A stretch of DNA of 64,000 nucleotides from Actinorugispora endophytica. GTDB lineage: Bacteria > Actinomycetota > Actinomycetes > Streptosporangiales > Streptosporangiaceae. Position numbers and translations under genes: made by a program. Of the stretch, positions 15,935 to 33,355 are shown piece after piece (positions within the stretch are counted from its first letter, which is position 1; each line of letters starts with the position of its first letter). Under the pieces are notes generated by a model. The model was not told the origin of the DNA. It searched no databases and saw only the letters and a list, made by a program, of their open reading frames with translations. The stretch spans positions 124,001 to 188,000 of the forward strand of contig NZ_SNYN01000004.1 of the NCBI RefSeq assembly GCF_004363075.1, written 5' to 3'.

Positions 15935-16019
15935 CCGATTCACGGTTCTTCGCCTTCCTCTGCCATCCCCTGCTGAAACGACGGTCCGGCGATTGACGAC
16001 GCCGGACTGGAGGAGCCCA

Positions 16020-19000
16020 ATGTCCGAGCCCGGTTCGCCGTCCCACCCCCGCACCCCCGTGCGCAGCATCCTGTCGTTCCTTCTCTCCCTGGTGATGCTC
16101 ACCGGGCTGCTGGTTGCCATCCCGGCCTCGGCGATGGCCTACAACACCAGACCCGACGTCGAGGACGACGAGCCGATCCCGGGAACCGATGCCCCCGACG
16201 CCCGGATCGTCCGAGACGACACGATCGACGACGCCGCCGTCACCGACCTGGGCGACCCCGCGTGGCCGACGGAGGCCAGCACCGAGGACGACCTCGCCGC
16301 CCCCGAGTCCGCCGAGGCCGACACCCCACCGGTCCCCGGTGAGGAGGAGACGGTCGCGATCGCCCCGGTCAACACCGAGGTCTTCGACGGATGGACGTCC
16401 CCCCTTCCCGGTGATGCCCCCGGCACCGGGGAGAGCCAGGGCGGAGACTCCCAGAACACCCCCGAGCCGAGCCCCGCGCCCCAGGACCCGGAACCGTCGC
16501 CCTCGCAGCAGGAAGGTCCGCCCCCCGAGGCGCAGCCGTCCTCGGAACCGGAGCAGGCCCGGGACGAACCCGGGGCGGCGGAGCAGGAGGAGGCCGCCGA
16601 GGCCGCGCCGGCCGGGGTCGAACCGGTGCGCAGCGCGCGCGTGGAGGTTCTGGACCAGGCCACCGCCGAACAAGCCGGGGTCACCGGTGTGCTGCTGCGC
16701 CTGACCCGAACCGACGGCGCCCAGACCACCGGCCCGGTCCAGATCGGCCTCGACTACGCCGACTTCGCCCCCGCTTTCGGCGCCGACTACGCCTCCCGCC
16801 TCGAACTCGTCGCTCTGGACGACTGCGTCCTCGATGCCGACGCCGCCGAGTGCGCGCCCGCGATCGACCTCGCCTCGGACAACCAGCCGCAGGTGATGAG
16901 GCTCAACGCCGTCGCCCCCGCAGCGGCGGGGGAGGGAACCCTCCTGGCTGCGGTGGCCGACAGCGAGGGCGAGACCGGCGACTACAAGGCGACCGAGCTC
17001 AACGCCGCGTCCAGTTGGGACGTGGGACTGCAGACCGGTGACTTCAACTGGGCCTACCCGATCAACGTCCCGGGGACCGCGGCCGGCCTCAAGCCGACCG
17101 TCGGGCTCAGCTACTCCTCGGGGTCGGTCGACGGGCGCACCGCCTCCTCCAACAGCCAGACCTCCTGGATCGGAGAGGGGTTCAGCTACGCCGCCGGGTA
17201 CATCGAGCGCAGCTACAAGCCGTGCGCGGACGACGGCCAAGCCGAGGGCGAGAAGACCGGGGACCAGTGCTGGTCCCGGCACAACGCCACCCTGTCGCTC
17301 AACGGCAAGGGCGGCGAGCTGATCCTCGACGAGGACGGCACCTGGCGGATGCGCAGCGACGACGGCACCAGGATCGAGCGGCTGACCGGCGCGGACAACG
17401 GCGACAACGACGGCGAGCACTGGAAGGTCACCACCACCGACGGCACCCAGTACTTCTTCGGCCGCAACCGGCTGCCCGGCTGGGAGAGCGGCGACCCCGA
17501 GACCGACTCGGCGTGGACCGTGCCGGTGTACGGCAACGACTCGGGCGAGCCCTGCCACGAGTCGACGTTCGCCGCCTCTTGGTGCCAGCAGGCGTACAAG
17601 TGGAACCTCGACTACGTGGTCGACGTGCACGGAAACGTCGTCACCTACCACTACGCCGAGGAGCGGAACCACTACGGCCGCAACCTCAAGACCACGGCCA
17701 CCCCGTACGTCCGGGGCGGTTACCTCACCCACATCGACTACGGCCTGCGCTCCGACGACGTCTACGCCACCGCCCCGGCCCGGGTGAAGTTCACCGTCGG
17801 CGAGCGGTGCCTCCCCACCGACGGCTTCGACTGCGCGCCGTCCAAGTTCACCGAGGCCAACGCCTCCAAGTGGCCCGACGTCCCGTTCGACCAGCACTGC
17901 GCCGTCGGAACCCCGTGCACCAACCGCTTCTCGCCCACGTTCTGGACCCGTAAGAAACTCGACAAGGTCACCACCCAGGTCCACGACGGCACCGCGTACA
18001 CCGACGTGGACTCCTGGGCCCTGGAGCACAAGTACCCCGCTCCCGGTGACGGCACCACCCCGTCGTTGTGGCTGAACTCCGTCACCCACACCGGCCACGT
18101 CGGCGGCACCGCCACCTCGCCGAAGGTGACCTTCGCGGGAACGGCGCTGGAGAACCGGGTCGACGGGCTCTCCGACGGCCTGGCGCCGATGCTCAAGTAC
18201 CGGATCACCTCCGTCTACACCGAGACCGGAGGCCAGGTCGACATCACCTACTCCGGCGAGGACTGCGCCCGGGGCTCCACGCCCAAGCCCCACGACAACG
18301 GCAAGCGCTGCTACCCGGTCCGCTGGACACCGGAGGGCGACGCCGAGCTCACCGACTGGTTCCACAAGTACGTCGTCACACAGGTCGCCGAGATCGACCT
18401 GGTCACCGACCAGCCCGACATGGTCACCACGTACGAGTACCTGGGCGGGGGCGCGTGGCGGTACGAGGAGGCCGACGGCTTCACCAAGGACAAGTACCGG
18501 ACCTGGTCCGACTGGCGCGGATACGAACGCGTCAAGGTGATATCCGGGGCTCCCGGCGAACAGCAGTCCGAGACCGAGCACCTGTTCTTCCGCGGTATGC
18601 ACGGCGACAAGCAGCCTTCGGGCACTCGCTCGGTCACCGTCACCGACTCCGAGGGCGGCATCCACACCGACCACGACGAACTCAACGGCGCCACCCGCGA
18701 GGAGATCATCCGCAACGGCCCGGGCGGCGCGGTCGTCGAGAAGACCATCACCACTCCGTGGCGCAAGAAGACCGCCGAGCGCGACTACTCGTGGGGAACG
18801 GTCTCGGCTTACCTGATCGACACCGCCTCCAGCCGCACCTACACCGCCGTCGACGACGGCTGGCGTCAGACCCGGGTCGACACCGCCTTCGACGACTACG
18901 GGTTTCCCACACAGGTCCACGACTACGGCGACGCCGCTCTCGACACCGACGACGAGTGCACCCGCACCACGTACACGCGCGACACGAGCGCGTGGATCCT

Positions 19001-22000
19001 GGACACCACCTCGCGCGAGGAGGTCGTCGCAGCCTCCTGCGCGCAGGCCCCAGAACGCCCCGCCGACGTGATCAGCGACAGCCGGACCTTCTACGACGGG
19101 GGAGCCTTCGGCGCGGCTCCGACCAGGGGCCTGCCCACCACGACCGAGCGGCTGGCCTCCTACGACGGAACCACCCCCGTCTACGAGACGAGCGAGCAGA
19201 CCGCCTACGACGCCTACGGGCGCGAGACCTCCTCCACCAACGCCGCGGGCCACACCACCAGGACCGGCTACGAGTCCGCGGTCCCCGGCGGCGCGCCCAC
19301 GGTCGTCACCGACGAGAACGCGCTCGGGCACACCGCCACCCAGTACATGGACCCCGCACGGTCCATGCTCGTCGCCACGGTGGACGCCAACAAGAACCGC
19401 ACCGACCTGCAGTACGACCCTCTGGGCCGGCTCACCGCGGTGTGGCTGGCCGACCGCGACAAGAGCACGGCGACACCCAGCCTGAAGTTCGAGTACCGCG
19501 TCCGCAACGACGCGCCCACCACCGTCGTGGCCTCGGCGGTGCGCAACGACGGCGGTTACAACTCCACCTTCACCCTCTACGACGCGTTCCTGCGCGAGCG
19601 CCAGATCCAGTCTCCGGCCGTGGGAGGCGAGGGACGCCTGGTCGCCGACACCTTCCACGACTCGCGCGGCCTGGCCGTCAAGAGCCGCGAGGCCTACTTC
19701 AACGCCGCCGCCGAGCCCGGCGACACCCTTCTCGTCGTCAACAACGACGACGAGATTCCCCGCTACTCCGAGACCGTCTACGACGGAGCCGAACGCCCCA
19801 CCGTCGTGCGCCACGTCTCGCGCGGCGAGGAGCAGTGGAGCACCACCACCGAGTACAGGGGCGACCGGACCCTCGTCACCCCGCCGGACGGCGACACCGC
19901 GACCACCACCATCACCGACGCCCGCGACCGGGTGGTGGAACTGCGCCAGCACCACGCCCCCACACCGACCGGCGCCTTCGACGCCACCACCTACACCTAT
20001 GCCAAGAACGGCGAGCTGGCCACCGTCACCGACCCCGCGGGCAACGTGTGGGAGACCACCTACGACCTGCGCGGACGCAAGATCCAGGCCGTCGACCCCG
20101 ACGCCGGGACCAGCACCTACACCTACGACGCGCTCGACCAGCTGGCCACCTCCACCGACGGGCGGGGCGAGACCGTCGCCTACACCTACGATGTGCTCGG
20201 CCGCAAGACCGGCCTGTACGACGACTCCCCGCAAGGAACCCAACGCGCCGGCTGGGTGTACGACACCCGCGCGAAGGGGCAGCTGACCTCGTCGACCAGG
20301 TACACCGATGACGGCGACTACACCAACGCGGTCCTGAGCTACGACAAGATGTACCGGCCGCTCGCCGAGACGGTCACCATTCCCGCGTCAGAGGGGCCGC
20401 TCGCAGGGACCTACCGCTACATCCGCTCCTACAACCCCGACGGCACGGTCAAGGACATGGCCTTCCCTCGGGCGGGAGGGCTGAGCGCCGAGCCGGTCAC
20501 CTTCGGCTACAACGAACTGGGCATGCCCACCACGGTCAAGGGCATCAACACCTACGTCGCCGAGGCCATCTACTCCAGGACCGGCAACCTGCTGCAGCGA
20601 ACCTTTCTGCGCGGCAGCACGGCTGACGAGACCTGGATCACGCGTGTCTTCGACGAGGCCACCAACCGCATGTCGCTGACTAGCGTCGTGCCCGAAGTCG
20701 GATCAGGATCGCTCCTCACCCAGAGCTACGAGTACGACGACGCGGGCAACATCCTGCGCATCGCGGACAAGCCCACCGGGCTCGAGCTGCCCACCGACAC
20801 CCAGTGCTTCACCTACGACCACCTGCGCCGCCTCACCAACGCCTGGACACCGGAGAGCACCGAGACCGGCGGGTGCGAGGCGGCCCCGACCACCGCGGGC
20901 CTGGGCGGCGCGGCCCCGTACTGGCATTCCTACACCTACGACGCGGTCGGCAACCGCGAGACCGAGGTCCAGCACGCCGCGGGCGGCGACATCACCCGCA
21001 CCTACACCCAGCCCGAGCCGGGCCAGGACCAGCCGCACGCCGTCACCCGGGTCGAGCAGACCGGTCCCGGCGGCGACCAGCTGGAGCAGTACGGCTACGA
21101 CGACGCGGGAAACCTGACCAGCCGCGTCACCCCCGCCTACGACCAGACCCTGGAGTGGGACGCCGAGGGAAAGCTGGTCCGGGTCACCGACGGCGACGCC
21201 CAGACGGAGTTCCGCTACGGCGCGGACGGTTCCCGGCTGGTCCGCGAGACGCCCACCGACGCGACTCTGTACCTGCCCGGTATGGAGGTGCGGATGGACA
21301 AGGCCGCGTTCTCGCTGGAGGCCACCCGCTTCTACGACCACGGCGGTGAAGGGGTAGCAGTCCGAGAGAACGACAACAAGCTGAGCTGGCTGTTCGCCGA
21401 CCACCACGGCACCGGGGAGCTCTCCGTCGACTCCGAGACCGGCGAGAGCACCCGGCGCCGCTTCACGGCGTTCGGTACCGACCGGGGTTCGAGCGGTGAG
21501 TGGCCGAGCCAGCGGGGGTTCGTGGGCGGGACTCTGGACACGTCGGTCGGTCTGACCCAGTTGGGGGCCAGGGCCTACGACGCGGCGATCGGCCGGTTCG
21601 TCTCTCCGGACCCAGTCGTCGACTTCACCGACCCCCAGCAGATCCACGGCTACGCCTACTCGGGCAACAACCCCGTCACCTTCACCGACCCCACCGGGCT
21701 GCTGACCAAGAAGTTCGGCGGGCGGCCCACCAAGATGGGGGGCGGAAGGTTCAAGACCAAGAACCGTGGGCGGGGACCCAAATCCGCCGCGGGCGGTGGC
21801 GGTGGTGGCGGCTATTCGGGTGGGGGTGGTTCGGGGGGCGGTTCCTATCGGCCCAGTGCGGGAAACGCGGTCTACCAGGGGATCCAGGGTGCGAACGCGG
21901 CGTTCAACCGGGTTCCGTTCGCCTCCCAGTACCGGGACTCCCAGGCGGGTGCCGTCGTGGCGCTCATGGAGATGAGCCCGATGGGGTGGGCCGGCAACTA

Positions 22001-23123
22001 CGCGCTCCAGCACACGACCGGGATGGGTTTCGCCGACAGCCTGCGCCTCTTCGGCGTCAACCAGGACTCGGGCTGGTACACCAGCGGCTACGTCGGCGCC
22101 TACATCGCCTCGATGATCACTCCCGGCGGCTGGGGCGCCGGCGGGATTCGCGCGGCCGTTCTGGGCGGGAAAGCGGCGCTGAAGCTGGGCGGTCTGAAGG
22201 GCTTGGGCGCCTTCGCCGCGAACGGAGCCAGAAGCGCCGGGTCCTACGCGGCCAACGCGGTGAGGAACGGGTGGCAGTCGGCCGGAAACGCCATCCGGGG
22301 ATGTGCGGGAAACAGCTTCGTTCCCGGGACCCGGGTGGTGATGGCCAACGGCGGCAGCAAGGCCATCGAGGACGTCGAGGTCGGCGACACGGTCCTGGCC
22401 ACCGACCCCGACACCGGGAACTCCGAGGCCAAGCCGGTGCTGGCCACCATCACCGGCTCGGGAAACAAGCACCTGGTCGAGATCACCGTCGACACCACCA
22501 CCGAGAAACCCGCCGGAGAAGATGGTAATGGAGAAGGCGCGCCGGGCCCTGTTGTATTTGGTGATGAAATTGTCGCTACTGGAGGGCATCCATTTTGGGT
22601 TCCTGAAAAAAATGAATGGGTAGATGCAAGTGATCTGACTCCTGGGATGTGGCTTCTCACTATTTCGAATAGTTGGGTTCAGGTCACTGCGGTTCGCATA
22701 TGGAGTCAGAATTCTACGGTCCATAACCTTACAGTCGATGACATAAATACTTATAATATTCGACTGAATGATTCCTCTGTTCTTGTTCATAATAGGAATA
22801 AGGTATGTGGCCTTAGGCTTTCTGATCCGAACCCGATTCCAAGAGTGATCCGTGAGCAGTATGAGGAGATAAGAGCGGGCCGTGGGACCCCCAGGCCTGA
22901 TGGTGTCGGAGGGCAACAGGTATACCAGGGAAGGGAACTCTTGAGCAGGCAGAGAGCGCAGTGGTCTGGGTCTTTGGAGTGGGATGTTCCCGGAACCAGT
23001 CATCGAATTTTGCAGCGTCTTGATGGTAATTTGGGGTATGTTCTAAACCATGATTACAGTAGTCCTTTTCTTTTTCCTGCGCCGTGGTATCCGGAAGGTG
23101 GGGCTATCCCCAGAAGACTTTAA
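16020..23123 (+). CDS. Secreted RHS-repeat polymorphic toxin with HINT domain and barnase-like tip
   Basis: A 2367-residue protein. Order: signal peptide (about 1-43, SFLLSLVMLTGLLVAIPASA), acidic Pro/Glu/Ser-rich linker (45-200), a beta-rich shell region, YD/RHS repeats (about 1050-1850), and the RHS core end FVSPDP..YAYSGNNPVTFTDPTGL (about 1860-1895). A HINT self-processing domain follows at about 2098-2258 (NSFVPGTRVVMANGG, TGGHPFWVP, NTYNIRLNDSSVLVHN). The last ~109 residues carry GRELL, LEWDV, HRILQR and LNHDY; Arg and His are 15 residues apart as in barnase (R87, H102), with the Glu in LEWDV as the likely third catalytic residue. The role is therefore an RNase delivered to competitors. 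The ATG at 16020 has GGAGGAG upstream. From about 22520 the base composition and codon use change abruptly to AT-rich, marking an acquired tip. Immunity is encoded next. Confidence 0.9.
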   Translation: MSEPGSPSHPRTPVRSILSFLLSLVMLTGLLVAIPASAMAYNTRPDVEDDEPIPGTDAPDARIVRDDTIDDAAVTDLGDPAWPTEASTEDDLAAPESAEADTPPVPGEEETVAIAPVNTEVFDGWTSPLPGDAPGTGESQGGDSQNTPEPSPAPQDPEPSPSQQEGPPPEAQPSSEPEQARDEPGAAEQEEAAEAAPAGVEPVRSARVEVLDQATAEQAGVTGVLLRLTRTDGAQTTGPVQIGLDYADFAPAFGADYASRLELVALDDCVLDADAAECAPAIDLASDNQPQVMRLNAVAPAAAGEGTLLAAVADSEGETGDYKATELNAASSWDVGLQTGDFNWAYPINVPGTAAGLKPTVGLSYSSGSVDGRTASSNSQTSWIGEGFSYAAGYIERSYKPCADDGQAEGEKTGDQCWSRHNATLSLNGKGGELILDEDGTWRMRSDDGTRIERLTGADNGDNDGEHWKVTTTDGTQYFFGRNRLPGWESGDPETDSAWTVPVYGNDSGEPCHESTFAASWCQQAYKWNLDYVVDVHGNVVTYHYAEERNHYGRNLKTTATPYVRGGYLTHIDYGLRSDDVYATAPARVKFTVGERCLPTDGFDCAPSKFTEANASKWPDVPFDQHCAVGTPCTNRFSPTFWTRKKLDKVTTQVHDGTAYTDVDSWALEHKYPAPGDGTTPSLWLNSVTHTGHVGGTATSPKVTFAGTALENRVDGLSDGLAPMLKYRITSVYTETGGQVDITYSGEDCARGSTPKPHDNGKRCYPVRWTPEGDAELTDWFHKYVVTQVAEIDLVTDQPDMVTTYEYLGGGAWRYEEADGFTKDKYRTWSDWRGYERVKVISGAPGEQQSETEHLFFRGMHGDKQPSGTRSVTVTDSEGGIHTDHDELNGATREEIIRNGPGGAVVEKTITTPWRKKTAERDYSWGTVSAYLIDTASSRTYTAVDDGWRQTRVDTAFDDYGFPTQVHDYGDAALDTDDECTRTTYTRDTSAWILDTTSREEVVAASCAQAPERPADVISDSRTFYDGGAFGAAPTRGLPTTTERLASYDGTTPVYETSEQTAYDAYGRETSSTNAAGHTTRTGYESAVPGGAPTVVTDENALGHTATQYMDPARSMLVATVDANKNRTDLQYDPLGRLTAVWLADRDKSTATPSLKFEYRVRNDAPTTVVASAVRNDGGYNSTFTLYDAFLRERQIQSPAVGGEGRLVADTFHDSRGLAVKSREAYFNAAAEPGDTLLVVNNDDEIPRYSETVYDGAERPTVVRHVSRGEEQWSTTTEYRGDRTLVTPPDGDTATTTITDARDRVVELRQHHAPTPTGAFDATTYTYAKNGELATVTDPAGNVWETTYDLRGRKIQAVDPDAGTSTYTYDALDQLATSTDGRGETVAYTYDVLGRKTGLYDDSPQGTQRAGWVYDTRAKGQLTSSTRYTDDGDYTNAVLSYDKMYRPLAETVTIPASEGPLAGTYRYIRSYNPDGTVKDMAFPRAGGLSAEPVTFGYNELGMPTTVKGINTYVAEAIYSRTGNLLQRTFLRGSTADETWITRVFDEATNRMSLTSVVPEVGSGSLLTQSYEYDDAGNILRIADKPTGLELPTDTQCFTYDHLRRLTNAWTPESTETGGCEAAPTTAGLGGAAPYWHSYTYDAVGNRETEVQHAAGGDITRTYTQPEPGQDQPHAVTRVEQTGPGGDQLEQYGYDDAGNLTSRVTPAYDQTLEWDAEGKLVRVTDGDAQTEFRYGADGSRLVRETPTDATLYLPGMEVRMDKAAFSLEATRFYDHGGEGVAVRENDNKLSWLFADHHGTGELSVDSETGESTRRRFTAFGTDRGSSGEWPSQRGFVGGTLDTSVGLTQLGARAYDAAIGRFVSPDPVVDFTDPQQIHGYAYSGNNPVTFTDPTGLLTKKFGGRPTKMGGGRFKTKNRGRGPKSAAGGGGGGGYSGGGGSGGGSYRPSAGNAVYQGIQGANAAFNRVPFASQYRDSQAGAVVALMEMSPMGWAGNYALQHTTGMGFADSLRLFGVNQDSGWYTSGYVGAYIASMITPGGWGAGGIRAAVLGGKAALKLGGLKGLGAFAANGARSAGSYAANAVRNGWQSAGNAIRGCAGNSFVPGTRVVMANGGSKAIEDVEVGDTVLATDPDTGNSEAKPVLATITGSGNKHLVEITVDTTTEKPAGEDGNGEGAPGPVVFGDEIVATGGHPFWVPEKNEWVDASDLTPGMWLLTISNSWVQVTAVRIWSQNSTVHNLTVDDINTYNIRLNDSSVLVHNRNKVCGLRLSDPNPIPRVIREQYEEIRAGRGTPRPDGVGGQQVYQGRELLSRQRAQWSGSLEWDVPGTSHRILQRLDGNLGYVLNHDYSSPFLFPAPWYPEGGAIPRRL

Positions 23124-23174
23124 GGGAAAATTCCCGATTTGTTGTGCTAGGTTTCTGTGAGCTTGGAGGCTGTG

Positions 23175-23954
23175 GTGAGAGAGTATTGGTTTTCGTTGAC
23201 AGGGGAAGAGGATTTGGCTTCAATTGCCAAAGCAAGAGAGATTGGTGGCCTTGTTTCTAACTGGGAAGAACCTCTTCCGAGTCGGATAATATTTTGGATG
23301 CTTGAATGCAGTTTGGGGGCGTCTTTGTTTGAAAAACTAGCAGCCCGAAAAAATGGAGATAAGACCGGTAGTTTAAATTTGGGTAATGCAAATATTCATA
23401 TTCTTGGAATGAATGGAGATATTATTGGTTCCTATTTCCTAGGGGATGTAACGATTGAAGGATTTTATAAAAAGGGCATACTTTTCGATCTGAAAATTTC
23501 AGGAATTTTATTTGATCGGCTGACCAATGATTCATGGAAGATTTGGGATTTTTGCAAAAGGGGAAAAATTGATTCTCGAAATATTTGGATTAACTTTTCT
23601 CGTGAAATGAAAACTGCTTGGCTTGAAGTGGCTAGAGTCAGAATGGTTGAGAATTTTGGAAAACTAAAAAATCTGGAGTCGGGATCTATGTTTTATTTTG
23701 ATGGAAGACATGTCGTAGATGAACTCAGCTTCTACTGTGCATTGGGTGAGGCAATCAATGGACCAGGAGGGTATTTCGGGAAAGGAGTGGATTCTTTTAA
23801 TGACTGCCTGAATGGTGGATTTGGCGCAATCCGCCCATTTAAACTTAACTGGAAAATTAATAAATACTCAAATGATCTACAGTGGGATCCATTTTGTGGT
23901 GAAATTGGGAAAATTTTTAAAGAAAAGGGAATTGAAGTCAATTATTACTACTGA
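23175..23954 (+). CDS. Immunity protein with C-terminal barstar-like domain
   Basis: About 259 residues, strongly AT-rich compared with the core genome. The last ~90 residues follow the barstar pattern: a strand ending FDGRHVVDELSFY, then GGYFGKGVDSFNDCLNGGFG (compare the YYGENLDALWDCL helix of barstar), FKLNWKI, and a final helix-strand GKIFKEKGIEVNYYY. The N-terminal ~170 residues are a separate region I do not recognise. It starts 51 bases after the toxin stop. GTG 23175 follows GGAGG (23165-23169); GTG 23157 is an alternative. Barstar blocks barnase-type RNases, matching the toxin tip upstream. Confidence 0.8.
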   Translation: MREYWFSLTGEEDLASIAKAREIGGLVSNWEEPLPSRIIFWMLECSLGASLFEKLAARKNGDKTGSLNLGNANIHILGMNGDIIGSYFLGDVTIEGFYKKGILFDLKISGILFDRLTNDSWKIWDFCKRGKIDSRNIWINFSREMKTAWLEVARVRMVENFGKLKNLESGSMFYFDGRHVVDELSFYCALGEAINGPGGYFGKGVDSFNDCLNGGFGAIRPFKLNWKINKYSNDLQWDPFCGEIGKIFKEKGIEVNYYY

Positions 23955-24013
23955 ACTTTAATTTGCGGGGTTACTGTTCTTGACAGGCCATCCCGCCGGA
24001 GTATGCCGAAGGT

Positions 24014-24627
24014 ATGAGGTACTCCACCGGCGGCGGGCTGACCGCCGCAGAACGCCAGCGACGCGAGGCGGTACGCATGGCCGCCGCGGACGACTTCGAC
24101 TCCGGAGCCACCGATACCCGGGTCGCCCGCGTCTACCAGGTCACCCACATGTCGGCCTGGCGATGGCACCACGCCTACGAAACCGGCGGCAGGCAGGCCT
24201 TGGAAACCAAGGGAGCCGCCTCGCACCGCCCCCTGAGCGAGGGGGAACTGGACCTACTGCAACAGCTCTTGGACCTGGGCCCGGCCGCGCACGGCTTCGC
24301 CGACCAGCGCTGGACCCTGGCCCGGATCAGAGCGGTGGCAGCCGAGCACTTCGATGTGACCTACTCACTCGCGGGCATGTCCCTGCTCCTGCACCGGCTC
24401 GGGGGGAGCGTGCAGGTCCCCACGCGACGCGCCGCCGAACGCGACGACGAGACCATCCGGGAGCGGGCCAGAGCGGCAGGCCGCTCATCACGCGTACCTG
24501 GGGCAGACGGGGCCTCACCCCGGTGATCACCGTCACCGGAGCGGGTCGGGGCCGGGGCAGCGTGGCCGCCCTGTGCTGCTACAAACCCGGACACAGGCCC
24601 CGGTTGCTGTACCGGCTGCACTCCTAG
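24014..24627 (+). pseudogene. IS630-family transposase remnant
   Basis: The first part (24014 to about 24470) encodes the N-terminal HTH region, with LTAAERQRREAVRMAA, RVARVYQVTHMSAWRW and the HRLGGSVQVP end of the winged-helix part. After about 24480 similarity resumes in another frame (ITRTWGRRGLTPVITVTG, CCYKPGHRPRL), so the catalytic DDE segment between them has been deleted and the frame is shifted. It stops at a TAG that abuts a second copy of RHS sequence. Confidence 0.85.
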
Positions 24628-25411
24628 ACTCGGGCTGGTACACCAGCGGCTACGTCGGCGCCTACATCGCCTCGATGATCACTCCCGGTAGTTGGGGTGC
24701 CGGCGGGATTCGCGCGGCTGTTCTGGGCGGGAAAGCGGCGCTGAAGCTGGGCGGTCTGAAGGGCTTGGGCGCCTTCGCCGAGAACGGAGCCAGAAGCGCT
24801 GTTAGATCCGGGTGGCAGTCAGCAAGAAATACAGTTAGTAGTTGCCTTACAGGTAGGTCTAATAGCTTTATTCCGGGCACCCGAGTGTTGATGGCCAACG
24901 GCGGCAGCCAGGCTATCGAGGACATCGAGGTCGGCGACACGGTCCTGGCCACCGACCCCGAAAGCGGAGAACAGGAAGCCAAGACGGTCCAGGCCACCAT
25001 CACCGGCTCGGGAATGAAGAACCTCGTCGAGATCACCGTCGATCCCGTTACCGAGAAACCCGCTGGCGAAAACGGTGACACAGACCCCGCCCCTGGCCCG
25101 GTGGTGGTCGGCGACACCATCACCGCCACCGACGGCCACCCCTTTTGGGTTCCCGAATTGGGTGAGTGGGTCGACGCCGAGAACCTGACCCCGGCACCTG
25201 GTTGCACACCTCCGCAGGCACCTGGATCCAGATCACCGCAGTCCGGGAGTGGACCCAGAGTGTCACCGTCCATAACCTCACCGTTAAGGACATCCACACC
25301 TACCACGTGCAAGCTGATTCTGGGGTCTGCCCCACTGACGCCCAGATGCGTGCCCGCGCGCCGGTCAGCGAGGTCCCGGCCTCGTCTTCGAACACCGCAC
25401 TAGCTGTATGA
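24628..25411 (+). pseudogene. Displaced RHS/HINT tail, frameshifted
   Basis: From 24628 this repeats, nearly base for base, the RHS toxin from about 22069 (SGWYTSGYVGAYIASMITPG) and continues into a HINT domain (SFIPGTRVLMANGGSQAIEDIEVGDTV, TDGHPFWVPELGEWVDAENL). At about 25190 one C is missing relative to the copy at 26.2 kb, and HINT sequence continues in another frame (GTWLHTSAGTWIQITAVREW to IHTYHVQADSG). It has no RHS shell and no start of its own. Its tip is cut by an IS481 remnant near 25400. Confidence 0.85.
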
Positions 25412-26136
25412 GGCCATCACGTTGGTGACACCGGTTGGGAGCCGCGAGGCTGGCGGTTGGCCGTCGGCAGTGCCGTGAGGGCGATGGTAGTTGTAGTGGA
25501 CGTTCCACATGCCGAGCGCGGCTACGCGTTCGTCTTCGGAGGTCCATTCGCGGGCGTAGAGGAACTCTTCGGTCAGGATCCGTTTGTGGCGCTCTACCTT
25601 GCCGTTGTGTCGAGGTATGCAGGGCGTGATGCGCTGGTGACGTGACCCGAGTAGTGCTCGGGCGAACGCGTCTGCGCGGTAGCGCGCGCCGTTGTCGGTG
25701 ACGATCCGCTCGATACGGGTGATGCCGTGGGCGGCGAACCAGGCGCGCCCGGTGCATGAACCCGATGGCGGTGCTGACCTTCTCCTTGGGCAGAGCTTCT
25801 GTGTAGGCGAGCCGGCTGAAGCCGTCGATGGCGGAGTGGAGGTAGACGTAGCCGCCGCGCTTGTTCTTCCTCTTCAGACGCTCGGTCGCCTTGGCCTGTG
25901 CGCTCCCACAGCCGTGGGCTCTCCGGCCACCGCCGTCTGGGATTCGACTGACCTTCTTCACATCGACGTGGACCATGTGCCCCGGTCGACGCGCCGTGAT
26001 CTTCCGCGGCTCCCAGTTCGGTTCGCCGATCGGGTCGATGAATTTCCGGTGGTTCAGCCCCAGTGCGAGCAGGTGCCGCGAAACCGTGCGCCGACTGATC
26101 GACATCCCCTCTGACTGGAACTCGAACGGGATCCGC
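25400..26136 (-). pseudogene. IS481-family transposase remnant
   Basis: The reverse strand carries the DDE part of an IS481 transposase: SISRRTVSRHLLALGL, RRPGHMVHVDVKKVSRIPDGGG, GYVYLHSAIDGFSRLAYTEALP, and, after a frameshift near 25755, VTDNGARYRADAF and the C-terminal TNVMASYS stop at 25400. The N-terminal third is missing. Both ends abut displaced HINT sequence. It is not functional. Confidence 0.85.
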
Positions 26137-26700
26137 GATGCTGACCCCTTCTGGGTCCCCGAAGCAGGCCAGTGGATCGACGCCGGGGACCTGACCCCCG
26201 GTACCTGGCTGCACACCTCCGCAGGCACCTGGGTGCAGGTCACCGCGGTCCGGAAGTGGACCCAGACCACCACCGCCCACAACCTCACTGTTGAAAACCT
26301 GCACACGTACCATGTGCTGGCCGGGCAGACACCGGTCCTCGTCCACAATTCCGGTGGATGTCCGACGGTGGGCCTCCTCAGCCCATCGCACCAGGCCGTC
26401 GGTGATTCCAATGCTAGGGGCGGCATCTATGCGTTGGTTTCGGAGAACGGAACGGTGATGCGAACGGGTATGGCCACGGATCTGCAGTCTCGTCTCGCCA
26501 CGCACCGACGGAACTATCCTGGTCTGACGGGCGTGGTCCTCTATCGGACGGATAATCGGGCTGCGAGGCGAGGTCTGGAGGAAATGGTCGAGAATTGGTA
26601 CACGCCAATCCTGGCTAATCAAAGGGCGATCCGTCTCGACAATCCGCGACGCCAAGGATACTTGCAAGCTACGCGTGATTTTCTGGATCAGTGGAGGTGA
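26137..26700 (+). pseudogene. Displaced HINT tail with GIY-YIG nuclease-like toxin tip
   Basis: In-frame HINT C-terminal half (PFWVPEAGQWIDAGDLTPGT, TYHVLAGQTPVLVHN to about 26350) is followed by a ~115-residue tip. The tip has GGIYALVSENGTVMRTGMATDLQSRLATH, the layout of a GIY-YIG nuclease with the second motif written RTG, and a later LEEMVENW that could hold the catalytic Glu. The 5-prime half of the HINT domain has been replaced by the IS481 remnant, so there is no shell, export signal or natural start. The cassette may serve as a donor for recombination. Its immunity gene is intact next door. Confidence 0.8.
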
Positions 26701-26709
26701 GTGGACGGT

Positions 26710-27138
26710 ATGAGTGCTTCAGGTGTAGGGCCATTCGAGAACGACTCGGCGATGGATCTGCTCGATGAGCTGCGAGGACTTGATGAGGGCGAGGTGATCG
26801 ACGCGCTGCGTGAGGCGTTGTCGTCCGCTACTGAAGTCGAGCCCGGAGACTATCTTGATCGCGACTTGGGCGAGCCGGCGGTAGCTGCTTCGGCTGTTGC
26901 TTTGGCGAAGATCAAGGGAAGAGATAGTGTCCTCGAAGCGGTCGAACTTTTGGATGCGGTCCCCGAGATTCCGTCCTCCTTCTTCTCGCTGGTTGTTTCG
27001 GCTCTTTCCAGGGTGCTGCAAGAGGATTCCGAGGCTTATGGCCTGTGGGTCGATGAAGGCCTCGGGGACGAGTGGAAAGCTGAAGTGGAACGTCTGCTGA
27101 ACGAAGCCAGCGAGGTTGCCCAAGGGGCATCAGGCTGA
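26710..27138 (+). CDS. DUF4259-family protein, probable immunity to the GIY-YIG tip
   Basis: A 142-residue acidic protein whose start (GVGPFENDSAMDLLDEL) is the signature of DUF4259, a family common beside polymorphic toxin tips. The rest is helical with VDEGLGDEWKAEVERLLNEA near the end. It begins 9 bases after the toxin-tip stop; ATG 26710 is chosen because GGAGGTGA lies at 26693-26700, although GTG 26701 is possible. The immunity role is inferred from position. It appears intact although the toxin has lost its carrier. Confidence 0.8.
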   Translation: MSASGVGPFENDSAMDLLDELRGLDEGEVIDALREALSSATEVEPGDYLDRDLGEPAVAASAVALAKIKGRDSVLEAVELLDAVPEIPSSFFSLVVSALSRVLQEDSEAYGLWVDEGLGDEWKAEVERLLNEASEVAQGASG

Positions 27139-27255: not shown

Positions 27256-28539
27256 TCAGCGGACGACGGCTACGGCAGGTGGATGGTCAGGAGGTTCCTC
27301 GGTGCCGTTCAGGGCGTTGTTGAGGCAGTCGATGGCTTGGCGTTGGAGGCGGAGCCGGACGTGGGCGTAGACGCCGGCCGTCACGCCGATGTGGGCGCGC
27401 CCCAGAAGTTCCTTGATCACGACGAGGTCGACGCCTTGTTCCAGGAGCAGGGTGGCCGTCGAGTGGCGCAGGTCGTGGAAGCGGATACGGCGGAGCCCGA
27501 CCCGGTCGAGGAGTCGGCCGAAGCGCCGGGTCATGTTGGCCGGGTCGATCGGTCCGCTGGTCGGCGTGGTGAAGACGAGCCCGCTGTCCTTCCAGCCCAC
27601 CCCGGCTACCTTGCGTTCTGCTTCCTGACGTTCCCGTTGGCCCTTCAGCGAGTGGACACACTCGGTCGGTAGGGCGGATGCGGCGTTCGGATGCGCGGGT
27701 CTTGGTGGGCAGGGCCGTCAGGCCGCCGCTCTGGGTTCGTTGGAGTGAGCGGCGGATGCTTGCGGTGCCGCCGTCGAGATCGAGGTCTTCCCAGTGCAGC
27801 CCGAGGAGCTCACCCTTGCGGAGGCCCGTGGCAGGGCGAGTTCGTGTAGCGCGTGGAGTCGGTCGCTGCTGGTGGTGTGGAGGAACTGCCGGGCTTCGGC
27901 GGCTGTGAGGGGCTTGAAGCGCCGGGGGCGGGGCGCTGCGGTCTTGATGTTCCGGGCGACGTTGCGGGGCAGTTCGTCTTCGCGGACGGCGTGCTCCAGG
28001 GCGGACTTGAGGACCGAGTGGACGTAGGCCACGGTCAGCGGTGACAGGCGCTTGTCACAGGACTGGCCGATGGCGCAGCACTGCCGCCGGGCCGTGTCCC
28101 TTCCCTGGGGGCAGCACTGGCAGGCGACGCGGAGGCGGTCGAGGAAGGCGCGGACGTCGTGGGCGGTGAGCCGGGCGAGCTTCTTGGCCCCGAGGCCGGG
28201 GATGAGATGGAGGCGGACACAGGTGGCGTAGCGGGTGTGCGTGTTCTCTCGCACCTGGTGGACGGCGACGCCGTTCAGCCAGTACGTCAGGTACGTGCCG
28301 ACGGTGCTGTCAGCCGCCGCGACGGGCAGGCCAAGGTTGCCGGCGGCGATCTTCGCGGTGAGCTTGGCGAGGGCTTCCTTGCGGGTGGTGCCGTAGACGC
28401 GGATGCGCTTGCGCGTGTTGCCGGGGGCGAGGACGCATCCGGCAGCCTCCCAGCGGCCGTCCTTGCGCTGGTAGACGGTTCCGTCGCCGTTGGCACGGGA
28501 GCGGATGCGGCGGGATGCGGCGGGGCGCGGAGAGGTCAT
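27256..28539 (-). pseudogene. Tyrosine recombinase (integrase) of a decayed integrative element
   Basis: The N-terminus (ANGDGTVYQRKDGRWEAAGCVL) is the AP2-like arm-binding region. It is followed by the SAM-like core-binding domain (TVGTYLTYWLNGV, LTAHDVRAFLDRL) and, in another frame, the catalytic domain with FHDLRHSTATLLLEQG, LLGRAHIG and the tyrosine in GVYAHV. A base is missing near 27836 and an extra base is present near 27680, so the middle of the catalytic domain is read out of frame. ATG 28539 overlaps the xis relic stop. Members of this type integrate actinomycete conjugative elements, usually at tRNA genes; none is visible here. Confidence 0.85.
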
Positions 28540-28764
28540 CAGGCGGCGGCTTCCTGTTCGAGGCGGGCACGAATGAAGTCGGTGAGGGCGTGGGGGGATG
28601 CGTCGGGCGCGGCCGAGGGTGATTGAGGCGAGCTGGCCGCTGCGGAGCAGGTCGTAGACGGCGGGGCGGCCGAGCTGGAGGCGGGCCATGACCTAGGGGA
28701 CCGTCAGCAGGTCTAGCGCTGGACTTGTCTCCGCGTGGAGGACGGTGGGCGTGGCCGAGGCCAT
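28539..28764 (-). pseudogene. Excisionase (Xis) relic
   Basis: The frame from the ATG at 28764 reads LDLLTVP, then a TAG in place of a likely CAG, then VMARLQLGRPAVYDLLRSGQ, a MerR-like HTH typical of excisionases of these elements. A deletion in a run of Cs near 28600 shifts the rest; the original end (DFIRARLEQEAAA) is still visible in another frame. It sits in the rep-xis-int order, with overlaps at both ends. Confidence 0.8.
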
Positions 28765-32432: not shown

Positions 32433-32875
32433 GTGTTCTCCGAGCATCAGGCCACGGGCCAGTTGGCGGTGGACGGGTTCGTGGACGGGACTCTGGACGC
32501 CTCGATCGGCCGGTTCGTCTCTCCGGACCCGGTCATCGACTTCACCGACCCCCAGCAGATCCACGGCTACGCCTACTCGGGCAACAACCCCGTCACCTTC
32601 ATCGACCCCACCGGACTGCTGGCCAAGAAAGCTTCTGCAAGTCGACACTCTCGGGGACTGCTTGCGGGGCCCTGGGGCACGGTTATTGTTTCAATGTTTT
32701 GTCCACTCCGGAGGGCGAAGTCGGTGGCGGTGCGCACTACACGTTTGGCATTGGGGGGCAACTTGGCCCCATGGTCGACTTTTATCAATTCGATCTGGCC
32801 AACTGGCAGAGGTTGAAAGTGGCGGATTCAAAACTCCCTCCACAGCTATGCCTTCCCGGAATTCCATTCTGTTGA
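32433..32875 (+). pseudogene. RHS core fragment with frameshifted tip
   Basis: DGTLDASIGRFVSPDPVIDF and YAYSGNNPVTFIDPTGLLAKK repeat the end of the RHS core of the main toxin (about 21530-21710). After about 32640 the frame is lost, but another frame continues as GHGYCFNVLSTPEGEVGGGA and ANWQRLKVADSKLPPQL to a TGA at 32875, which looks like a real toxin C-terminus I cannot identify. There is no HINT domain here; the tip was joined directly to the core. Confidence 0.75.
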
Positions 32876-32954
32876 TTTGGGAAAAATTTGCATTCGGGAA
32901 GAGAATTTATGTTTGGAATTGAAGCTCTTCTGTCTATCACGTCGGGATGAATGA

Positions 32955-33182
32955 ATGATAATAATCATTGCCGCATTTCTTTCTGTGATCGGATTATCCT
33001 TTTGGATTCTTTTTGAAAAAATATTCGACTTTCTCGCGGGAGGGGATTGGTGGAGGGATGGGAAGAGGGCTGTCATCAGTCCTGAGTCTCTGGTCTTCGG
33101 AAGAATTTTCGTCGGCTTGATTCCTTTTTCCATGTCCCTGATCATATTTTTTAGTTTTTTTCGGAACATGCTCGGCGAGTAG
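32955..33182 (+). CDS. Small membrane protein
   Basis: A 75-residue AT-rich gene. Two hydrophobic segments (about residues 1-22 and 48-68) flank a short polar loop GGDWWRDGKRAVISPES. ATG 32955 follows GGGATGAATG. It lies behind the displaced tip at 32.9 kb, the position of an immunity gene, but function is unknown. Confidence 0.55.
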   Translation: MIIIIAAFLSVIGLSFWILFEKIFDFLAGGDWWRDGKRAVISPESLVFGRIFVGLIPFSMSLIIFFSFFRNMLGE

Positions 33183-33355
33183 AGTTATTGAGGGTGTTTC
33201 TAAAAAATTAGATGCGTTTTTGATGGATTTCGACCCTCGCCGTCGTCCGCGCCGACGAACGCACACCGACCCACATTGGATCGCGCGGGTGGCCTCGCGA
33301 TATTGCCAAATTACGTATGAAGATCGCTCGTTCGGGAAGTTGCTAAAGGATTTTG

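What the first reader, a model, noticed from the sequence alone, without database searches (positions are those of the whole stretch)
22480..22560. Recombination junction inside the HINT domain
Codon use and GC content change abruptly at about 22515-22525, just after EKPAGE, inside the HINT domain. The same KPAGE stretch occurs in the displaced copy at about 25060. This suggests that new tips are spliced in by homologous exchange within HINT rather than between domains.
Basis: seen in the sequence. Interest (0 to 1): 0.6.

Follow-up and report, generated by a model that had tools for sequence, protein, structure and literature searches.

The report
Chimeric HINT domain in Rhs toxin
A bacterial competition-toxin gene has a real splice-like seam in the middle of its self-processing (HINT) domain, where host-like DNA meets foreign-looking AT-rich DNA carrying the toxin tip and its antidote; the seam is genuine and unusual, but 147 related genes show that tips are normally exchanged about 230 bases further on, at the end of that domain.

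Summary
In the Rhs-HINT toxin gene (15993-23123, +) third-codon GC falls from 0.92 to 0.31 at 22503-22518, inside the KPAGE codons. Identity to the displaced copy independently breaks at 22514 (86% to 63%). The AT-rich island runs from 22515 to about 23960: HINT C-half, tip and Barstar-type immunity gene. Recombination is the best account of this locus, though the donor was not found.

The generalisation fails. Among 147 HINT copies with tips, the window has by far the largest HINT N-to-C drop (0.62; mean -0.01, sd 0.10; next 0.20). Of 101 copies with a significant GC3 drop, 87 drop at the HINT end or the first ten tip codons, and only this one in the mid-HINT loop. Tips shared between lineages bring only about the last 20 HINT codons with them. 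The nearest relatives of this tip follow the Rhs core DPxGL motif with no HINT at all. So exchange is normally at the HINT-tip border, not at KPAGE, and the displaced copy was not shown to be the partner. In the DNA trees c1 stays with the window's own copies on both sides of the seam; only its branch lengthens, from 0.05 to 0.67.

The parts
15993..23123 (+). Rhs-repeat polymorphic toxin gene (2376 aa), unbroken reading frame across the junction
   Evidence: Pfam RHS_repeat E 3e-18, PT-HINT E 4.5e-13; translation
22302..22514 (+). HINT N-half, host-like composition (GC3 0.92); holds the first Cys
22503..22518 (+). Junction, placed inside the EKPAGE codons, at the end of a long beta strand and the start of the only disordered loop of HINT
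   Evidence: GC3 break; identity break 22514; triplet test with c1 puts breaks at 22491-22506; model m484b7b9b194d: strand to residue 74, mean pLDDT 62 and 54 for residues 71-80 and 81-90
22515..22793 (+). HINT C-half, AT-rich (GC3 0.31); keeps TxxH and terminal HN
22719..22793 (+). VHNLTV..LVHN block: equivalent of the place where relatives normally exchange tips (edge at residue 151, nt 22743)
22812..23120 (+). C-terminal toxin tip (103 aa); relatives in other genera of the family; no Pfam, NCBIfam or credible PDB match
23157..23954 (+). Immunity gene with C-terminal Barstar-like part, GC3 0.33; relatives found beside the relatives of the tip
   Evidence: Barstar E 1e-5
22515..23960 (+). AT-rich island: HINT C-half + tip + immunity gene in a 70% GC window
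24014..24526 (+). IS630-family transposase remnant (N-terminal part)
   Evidence: NCBIfam E 1.9e-17
24627..25345 (+). Displaced copy c2: pre-HINT segment and HINT, GC-rich across the KPAGE point (25056-25070), HINT split over two frames near 25195, own tip lost
25365..26426 (-). IS481-family transposase ORF between c2 and c3 (partial match)
   Evidence: NCBIfam E 6.5e-21; Pfam rve
26144..26352 (+). Orphan copy c3: HINT C-half only, 82% identical to c2
26359..26700 (+). Tip of c3, weak GIY-YIG resemblance (below cut-off)
   Evidence: Pfam E 0.033
26701..27138 (+). DUF4259 protein, probable immunity gene of c3
   Evidence: Pfam E 4e-21
32475..32629 (+). Rhs core-end remnant (95% to 21579-21712) ending at DPTGL

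Best explanation
The gene is a mosaic. Its Rhs core and HINT N-half are host-like. A cassette holding the HINT C-half, the toxin tip and the immunity gene (22515 to about 23960) was joined to it by homologous exchange inside HINT, within the EKPAGE codons just before the disordered loop between the two HINT halves. The chimeric HINT keeps its Cys, TxxH and terminal HN and should still cut off the tip. This mid-HINT seam is visible only because the incoming HINT C-half is unusually AT-rich. Normal exchange in this family has its edge in the last 20 or so HINT codons. Shown: the junction, its position and its rarity. Inferred: homologous exchange as the mechanism, arrival of C-half, tip and immunity gene in one event, and a working chimeric HINT.
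For: Composition and identity breaks coincide at 22503-22518. All of 22515-23960 is AT-rich in a 70% GC window. The window is the extreme of 147 HINT copies. Triplet tests with c1 place breaks at 22491-22506. The reading frame and catalytic positions are kept, and the junction falls at the start of the only disordered loop in a confident HINT model. Barstar-type immunity genes accompany homologous tips elsewhere, so tip and immunity gene move together. Copies with near-identical HINTs and unrelated tips in one genome show HINT acting as the shared arm. Precedent: tip displacement by recombination in conserved sequence (PMC2935791, PMC3967940, PMC3150448).
Against: No donor was found in the own genome, 341 family genomes, 395 genomes of the class (some of them shared with the family set) or the plasmid collection. 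In the C-half DNA tree c1 still groups with the window's own c2 and c3 (100/98), so topology does not change across the seam; rival placements are not rejected either (AU p 0.08 and 0.14), and the protein tree is unresolved. Tip relatives lack this HINT C-half, so the cassette itself has a second, older seam at the HINT-tip border. Only one genome of the genus is held.
Confidence: 0.68

Rival explanations
1. Reverse order: a whole AT-rich HINT-tip-immunity cassette came in, with its exchange point at or before the HINT start, and the HINT N-half was later overwritten by gene conversion from a GC-rich copy such as c2.
For: Copies c1 and c2 also have an earlier identity break, at 22259 before HINT. 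c2 has an AT-rich patch at 24797-24880 just before and into HINT, as if it were a leftover of an AT-rich HINT start. Near-identical HINT copies within single genomes suggest homogenisation.
Against: c1 and c2 are only 86% identical over the N-half, so c2 is not a recent conversion donor. No AT-rich HINT N-half is left in the genome.
Confidence: 0.2
2. No exchange inside HINT: the C-half, tip and immunity gene drifted to AT under relaxed selection, for example as a silent orphan, and the seam marks where selection resumed.
For: The C-half keeps its relationship to c2/c3 (100/98) with a long branch. Tips have lower GC3 than their HINT C-half in 141 of 147 copies.
Against: A step from GC3 0.92 to 0.31 within about five codons is not gradual, and no other copy comes near it. 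The orphan idea would still need a recombination at the seam to join it to the main gene.
Confidence: 0.07
3. Assembly chimera at the repeated HINT segment in a draft genome of 44 contigs.
For: The repeat c1/c2 ends within a few bases of the junction; the genome is a draft.
Against: The repeat is short (173 and 210 bases) and only 97% and 85% identical. The frame, HINT alignment and catalytic positions run through without error, and the island continues 1.4 kb to a matching immunity gene.
Confidence: 0.04

Closest known systems
Rhs C-terminal tip displacement (Jackson 2009, PMC2935791; Koskiniemi 2014, PMC3967940)
   Same: Constant Rhs core, exchangeable tip with immunity gene, displaced fragments and insertion-element remnants downstream, exchange through conserved sequence upstream of the tip
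   Different: Here a HINT domain lies between core and tip, and the seam is in the middle of HINT rather than in the core or at DPxGL
Polymorphic toxins with pretoxin HINT (Zhang 2012, PMC3482391; Pfam PF07591)
   Same: RHS - HINT - toxin - immunity order; HINT directly before the tip; toxin-immunity pairs replaced as cassettes
   Different: HINT itself is a composite of two halves of different composition; measured here, the normal exchange edge lies in the last 20 or so HINT codons
CDI VENN-motif exchange of CdiA-CT/CdiI modules (Poole 2011, PMC3150448)
   Same: A short conserved motif before the toxin marks the exchange edge; orphan modules downstream
   Different: The edge motif here is the HINT end, HTYxVxAG..LVHN, and the window departs even from that

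Membership tests
Rhs polymorphic toxin locus with displaced tips | RHS repeats and core followed by a variable tip | tested here: met
   Pfam RHS_repeat; tip unrelated among copies with near-identical HINT
Rhs polymorphic toxin locus with displaced tips | Cognate immunity gene directly after the tip | tested here: met
   Barstar match; relatives of the immunity gene beside tip relatives; protection itself not tested
Rhs polymorphic toxin locus with displaced tips | Downstream displaced fragments with homology to the main gene | tested here: met
   c2, c3 and a core-end remnant
PT-HINT (PF07591) | Profile match above the gathering score | tested here: met
   50.1 bits against a 27.7 cut-off
PT-HINT (PF07591) | Catalytic Cys, TxxH and terminal HN retained | tested here: met
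   T97, H100, H167, N168 invariant and C5 nearly invariant in 12 sequences
PT-HINT (PF07591) | Self-cleavage that releases the tip | not testable with these tools
   needs an experiment
Tip exchange by recombination inside HINT | Breakpoints in relatives cluster at the KPAGE position | tested here: not met
   1 of 101 GC3 drops in the mid-HINT loop; tip-linked identity begins at residue 151; triplet breaks without c1 are few and elsewhere
Tip exchange by recombination inside HINT | Change of tree topology across the junction for the window gene | tested here: inconclusive
   c1 with c2 (98/93) in the N-half and with c2, c3 (100/98) in the C-half; end branch 0.05 against 0.67; AU tests do not reject alternatives
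Barnase/BECR-type ribonuclease toxin | Sequence or fold match of the tip to barnase-like RNases | tested here: inconclusive
   No Pfam, NCBIfam or credible PDB match; single-sequence model poor, pLDDT 45.6; only the immunity gene points that way

The most novel reading that the evidence does not exclude
The loop between the two halves of the pretoxin HINT fold is a second, rarely used crossover site. HINT halves from different sources can be joined there and still work, so a toxin gene can take in a cassette whose HINT end is too diverged to recombine at the usual place.
Probability: 0.25. Interest if true: 0.5.

Novelty: new member of a known kind. Interest (0 to 1): 0.36.

Why it matters
It turns a general statement (toxin tips are swapped by recombination) into measured positions for HINT-bearing Rhs toxins: the usual edge is the last 20 or so codons of HINT, and the window shows a rare exception in the middle of the fold. 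That makes it testable whether HINT serves as a recombination arm as well as a protease, and whether split HINT halves are interchangeable.

Tried and rejected
Displaced copy c2 as the exchange partner: rejected as unproven, because it is only 86% identical before the junction and stays GC-rich after it. Clustering of breakpoints at KPAGE: rejected. First triplet scan was spoiled by two truncated copies with non-homologous starts (L080_7181, L082_3438) and was redone without them. Apparent nearest neighbour L018 was an alignment artefact of free end gaps. PDB hit 2i13 for the tip is a zinc-finger chain matched over 47 residues and was disregarded. Single-sequence fold of the tip was too poor to use. 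Donor searches in plasmids gave only weak HINT relatives, nearly all in Streptomyces. Literature search for recombination within HINT found nothing specific.

Full report
What is there. The window holds a 2376-residue Rhs toxin gene (15993-23123, +) with RHS repeats, a pretoxin HINT domain and a 103-residue tip, followed by an immunity gene whose end matches Barstar. Downstream are an IS630 remnant, a displaced copy c2 (pre-HINT and HINT, split over two frames), an IS481-type element, an orphan copy c3 (HINT C-half with its own tip and a DUF4259 gene) and, 9 kb on, a remnant of the Rhs core end. G113, a genome of group g34, carries a contig of the same length as a Nocardiopsis record with the same HINT sequence, so g34 is probably Nocardiopsis; the window's own genus has no other genome in the held set.

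The observation. Third-codon GC breaks at 22515 (interval 22503-22518; dlnL 78.8 against a maximum of 10.9 in 5000 shuffles). It is 0.92 before, 0.31 in the HINT C-half, 0.48 in the tip and 0.33 in the immunity gene. Independently of composition, identity between c1 and c2 falls from 86% to 63% at 22514. KPAGE is 22506-22520 in c1 and 25056-25070 in c2, so the first AT-ending codons start inside the motif (sequence). GC returns to about 70% by 24000. The island is therefore HINT C-half, tip and immunity gene.

How unusual it is. I collected 148 distinct full HINT copies, mostly from the same GTDB family; 147 have a tip of 30 residues or more. The difference in GC3 between HINT N- and C-halves averages -0.008 (sd 0.10); the window has 0.62 and the next highest 0.20. 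Of 101 copies with a significant GC3 drop, 77 drop at residues 140-172, 10 in the first ten tip codons, 8 further into the tip, 5 at residues 93-139, and one, the window, in the mid-HINT loop. The copies are not independent, and they were found by similarity to this HINT.

Where tips are normally exchanged. Composition cannot see crossovers between HINTs of like GC, so I used shared tips. Tips 91-97% identical sit behind HINT C-halves of 44-92% protein identity, and across tip-sharing pairs the C-half is no more alike, relative to the N-half, than in the background (C minus N -0.010, se 0.014, against -0.014). In 14 tip-sharing pairs, compared with unrelated pairs of equal N-half identity, excess DNA identity is near zero through residue 151 and then 0.15, 0.19, 0.17 and 0.44. 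Six of these pairs come from one tip cluster. Conversely, all five pairs with HINTs at least 95% identical have unrelated tips; four are two copies from one array and the fifth (L080/L083) two loci of one genome. In these and two further pairs, identity falls at residues 149-169. The exchange edge is thus the last 20 or so codons of HINT. The nearest relatives of this tip (64% and 53%, in G009 and G278) follow the Rhs core DPLGL motif with no HINT, while those of G025, G268, G267 and G233 follow HINT domains.

Phylogeny across the seam. In DNA trees c1 pairs with c2 in the N-half (98/93) and with c2 and c3 in the C-half (100/98), but its end branch grows from 0.05 to 0.67. Forcing c1's C-half to join other AT-rich copies is not rejected (p 0.08 and 0.14), and the protein tree is unresolved. 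Triplet tests involving c1 put breaks at 22491-22506; without c1 only two other rows give a signal, at other places. So there is a seam, but its donor could be a close relative, an unknown lineage or an old AT-drifted copy of the same locus.

Mechanism. The likeliest course is homologous exchange inside HINT at the end of the strand before the loop between the halves (model mean pLDDT 86.5, loop blocks 62 and 54), which brought in C-half, tip and immunity gene together. That one event did this, and that the chimeric HINT works, is inferred. The catalytic Cys, TxxH and HN are kept. The cassette itself carries an older seam at the HINT-tip border, since its tip relatives lack this C-half. The reverse order, with later conversion of the N-half, cannot be excluded with one genome.

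Known context. Tip displacement with orphan arrays is established for Rhs (PMC2935791, PMC3967940) and CDI (PMC3150448), and HINT-bearing polymorphic toxins are described (PMC3482391). This is a further case of that kind, with an unusual seam.

Noticed in passing
24797-24880: Short AT-rich patch in the otherwise GC-rich displaced copy c2, just before and into the HINT start; it could be a leftover of an AT-rich HINT start matching the AT-rich C-half of the main gene.
   Followed up: partly
L080 (G320:C1:1258000-1276000): Array of five HINT copies with differing tips, C-halves mostly 89-99% identical: a good natural record of tip exchange.
   Followed up: partly
L141 (G009:C33), L142 (G278:C1): Same tip family fused directly after the Rhs core DPLGL motif, without HINT, with Barstar-like immunity relatives; L142 has two such immunity copies.
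   Followed up: partly
22782-22799: The residue after the terminal HN of the window HINT is Arg, whereas many relatives have Cys, Ser or Thr there; it may affect how the tip is released.
   Followed up: no
26359-27138: Second toxin-immunity cassette: weak GIY-YIG-like tip and a DUF4259 protein.
   Followed up: partly
32475-33200: Rhs core-end remnant followed by AT-rich DNA (47% GC): probably another displaced tip joined at DPTGL instead of HINT.
   Followed up: no
27718-28689 (-): Part of a phage-type integrase with an N-terminal SAM-like domain, close downstream of the toxin array.
   Followed up: no
L089_12385, L209_700: Two other HINT copies with a milder GC3 drop inside the C-half at about residue 105; possible weaker analogues of the window seam.
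   Followed up: no
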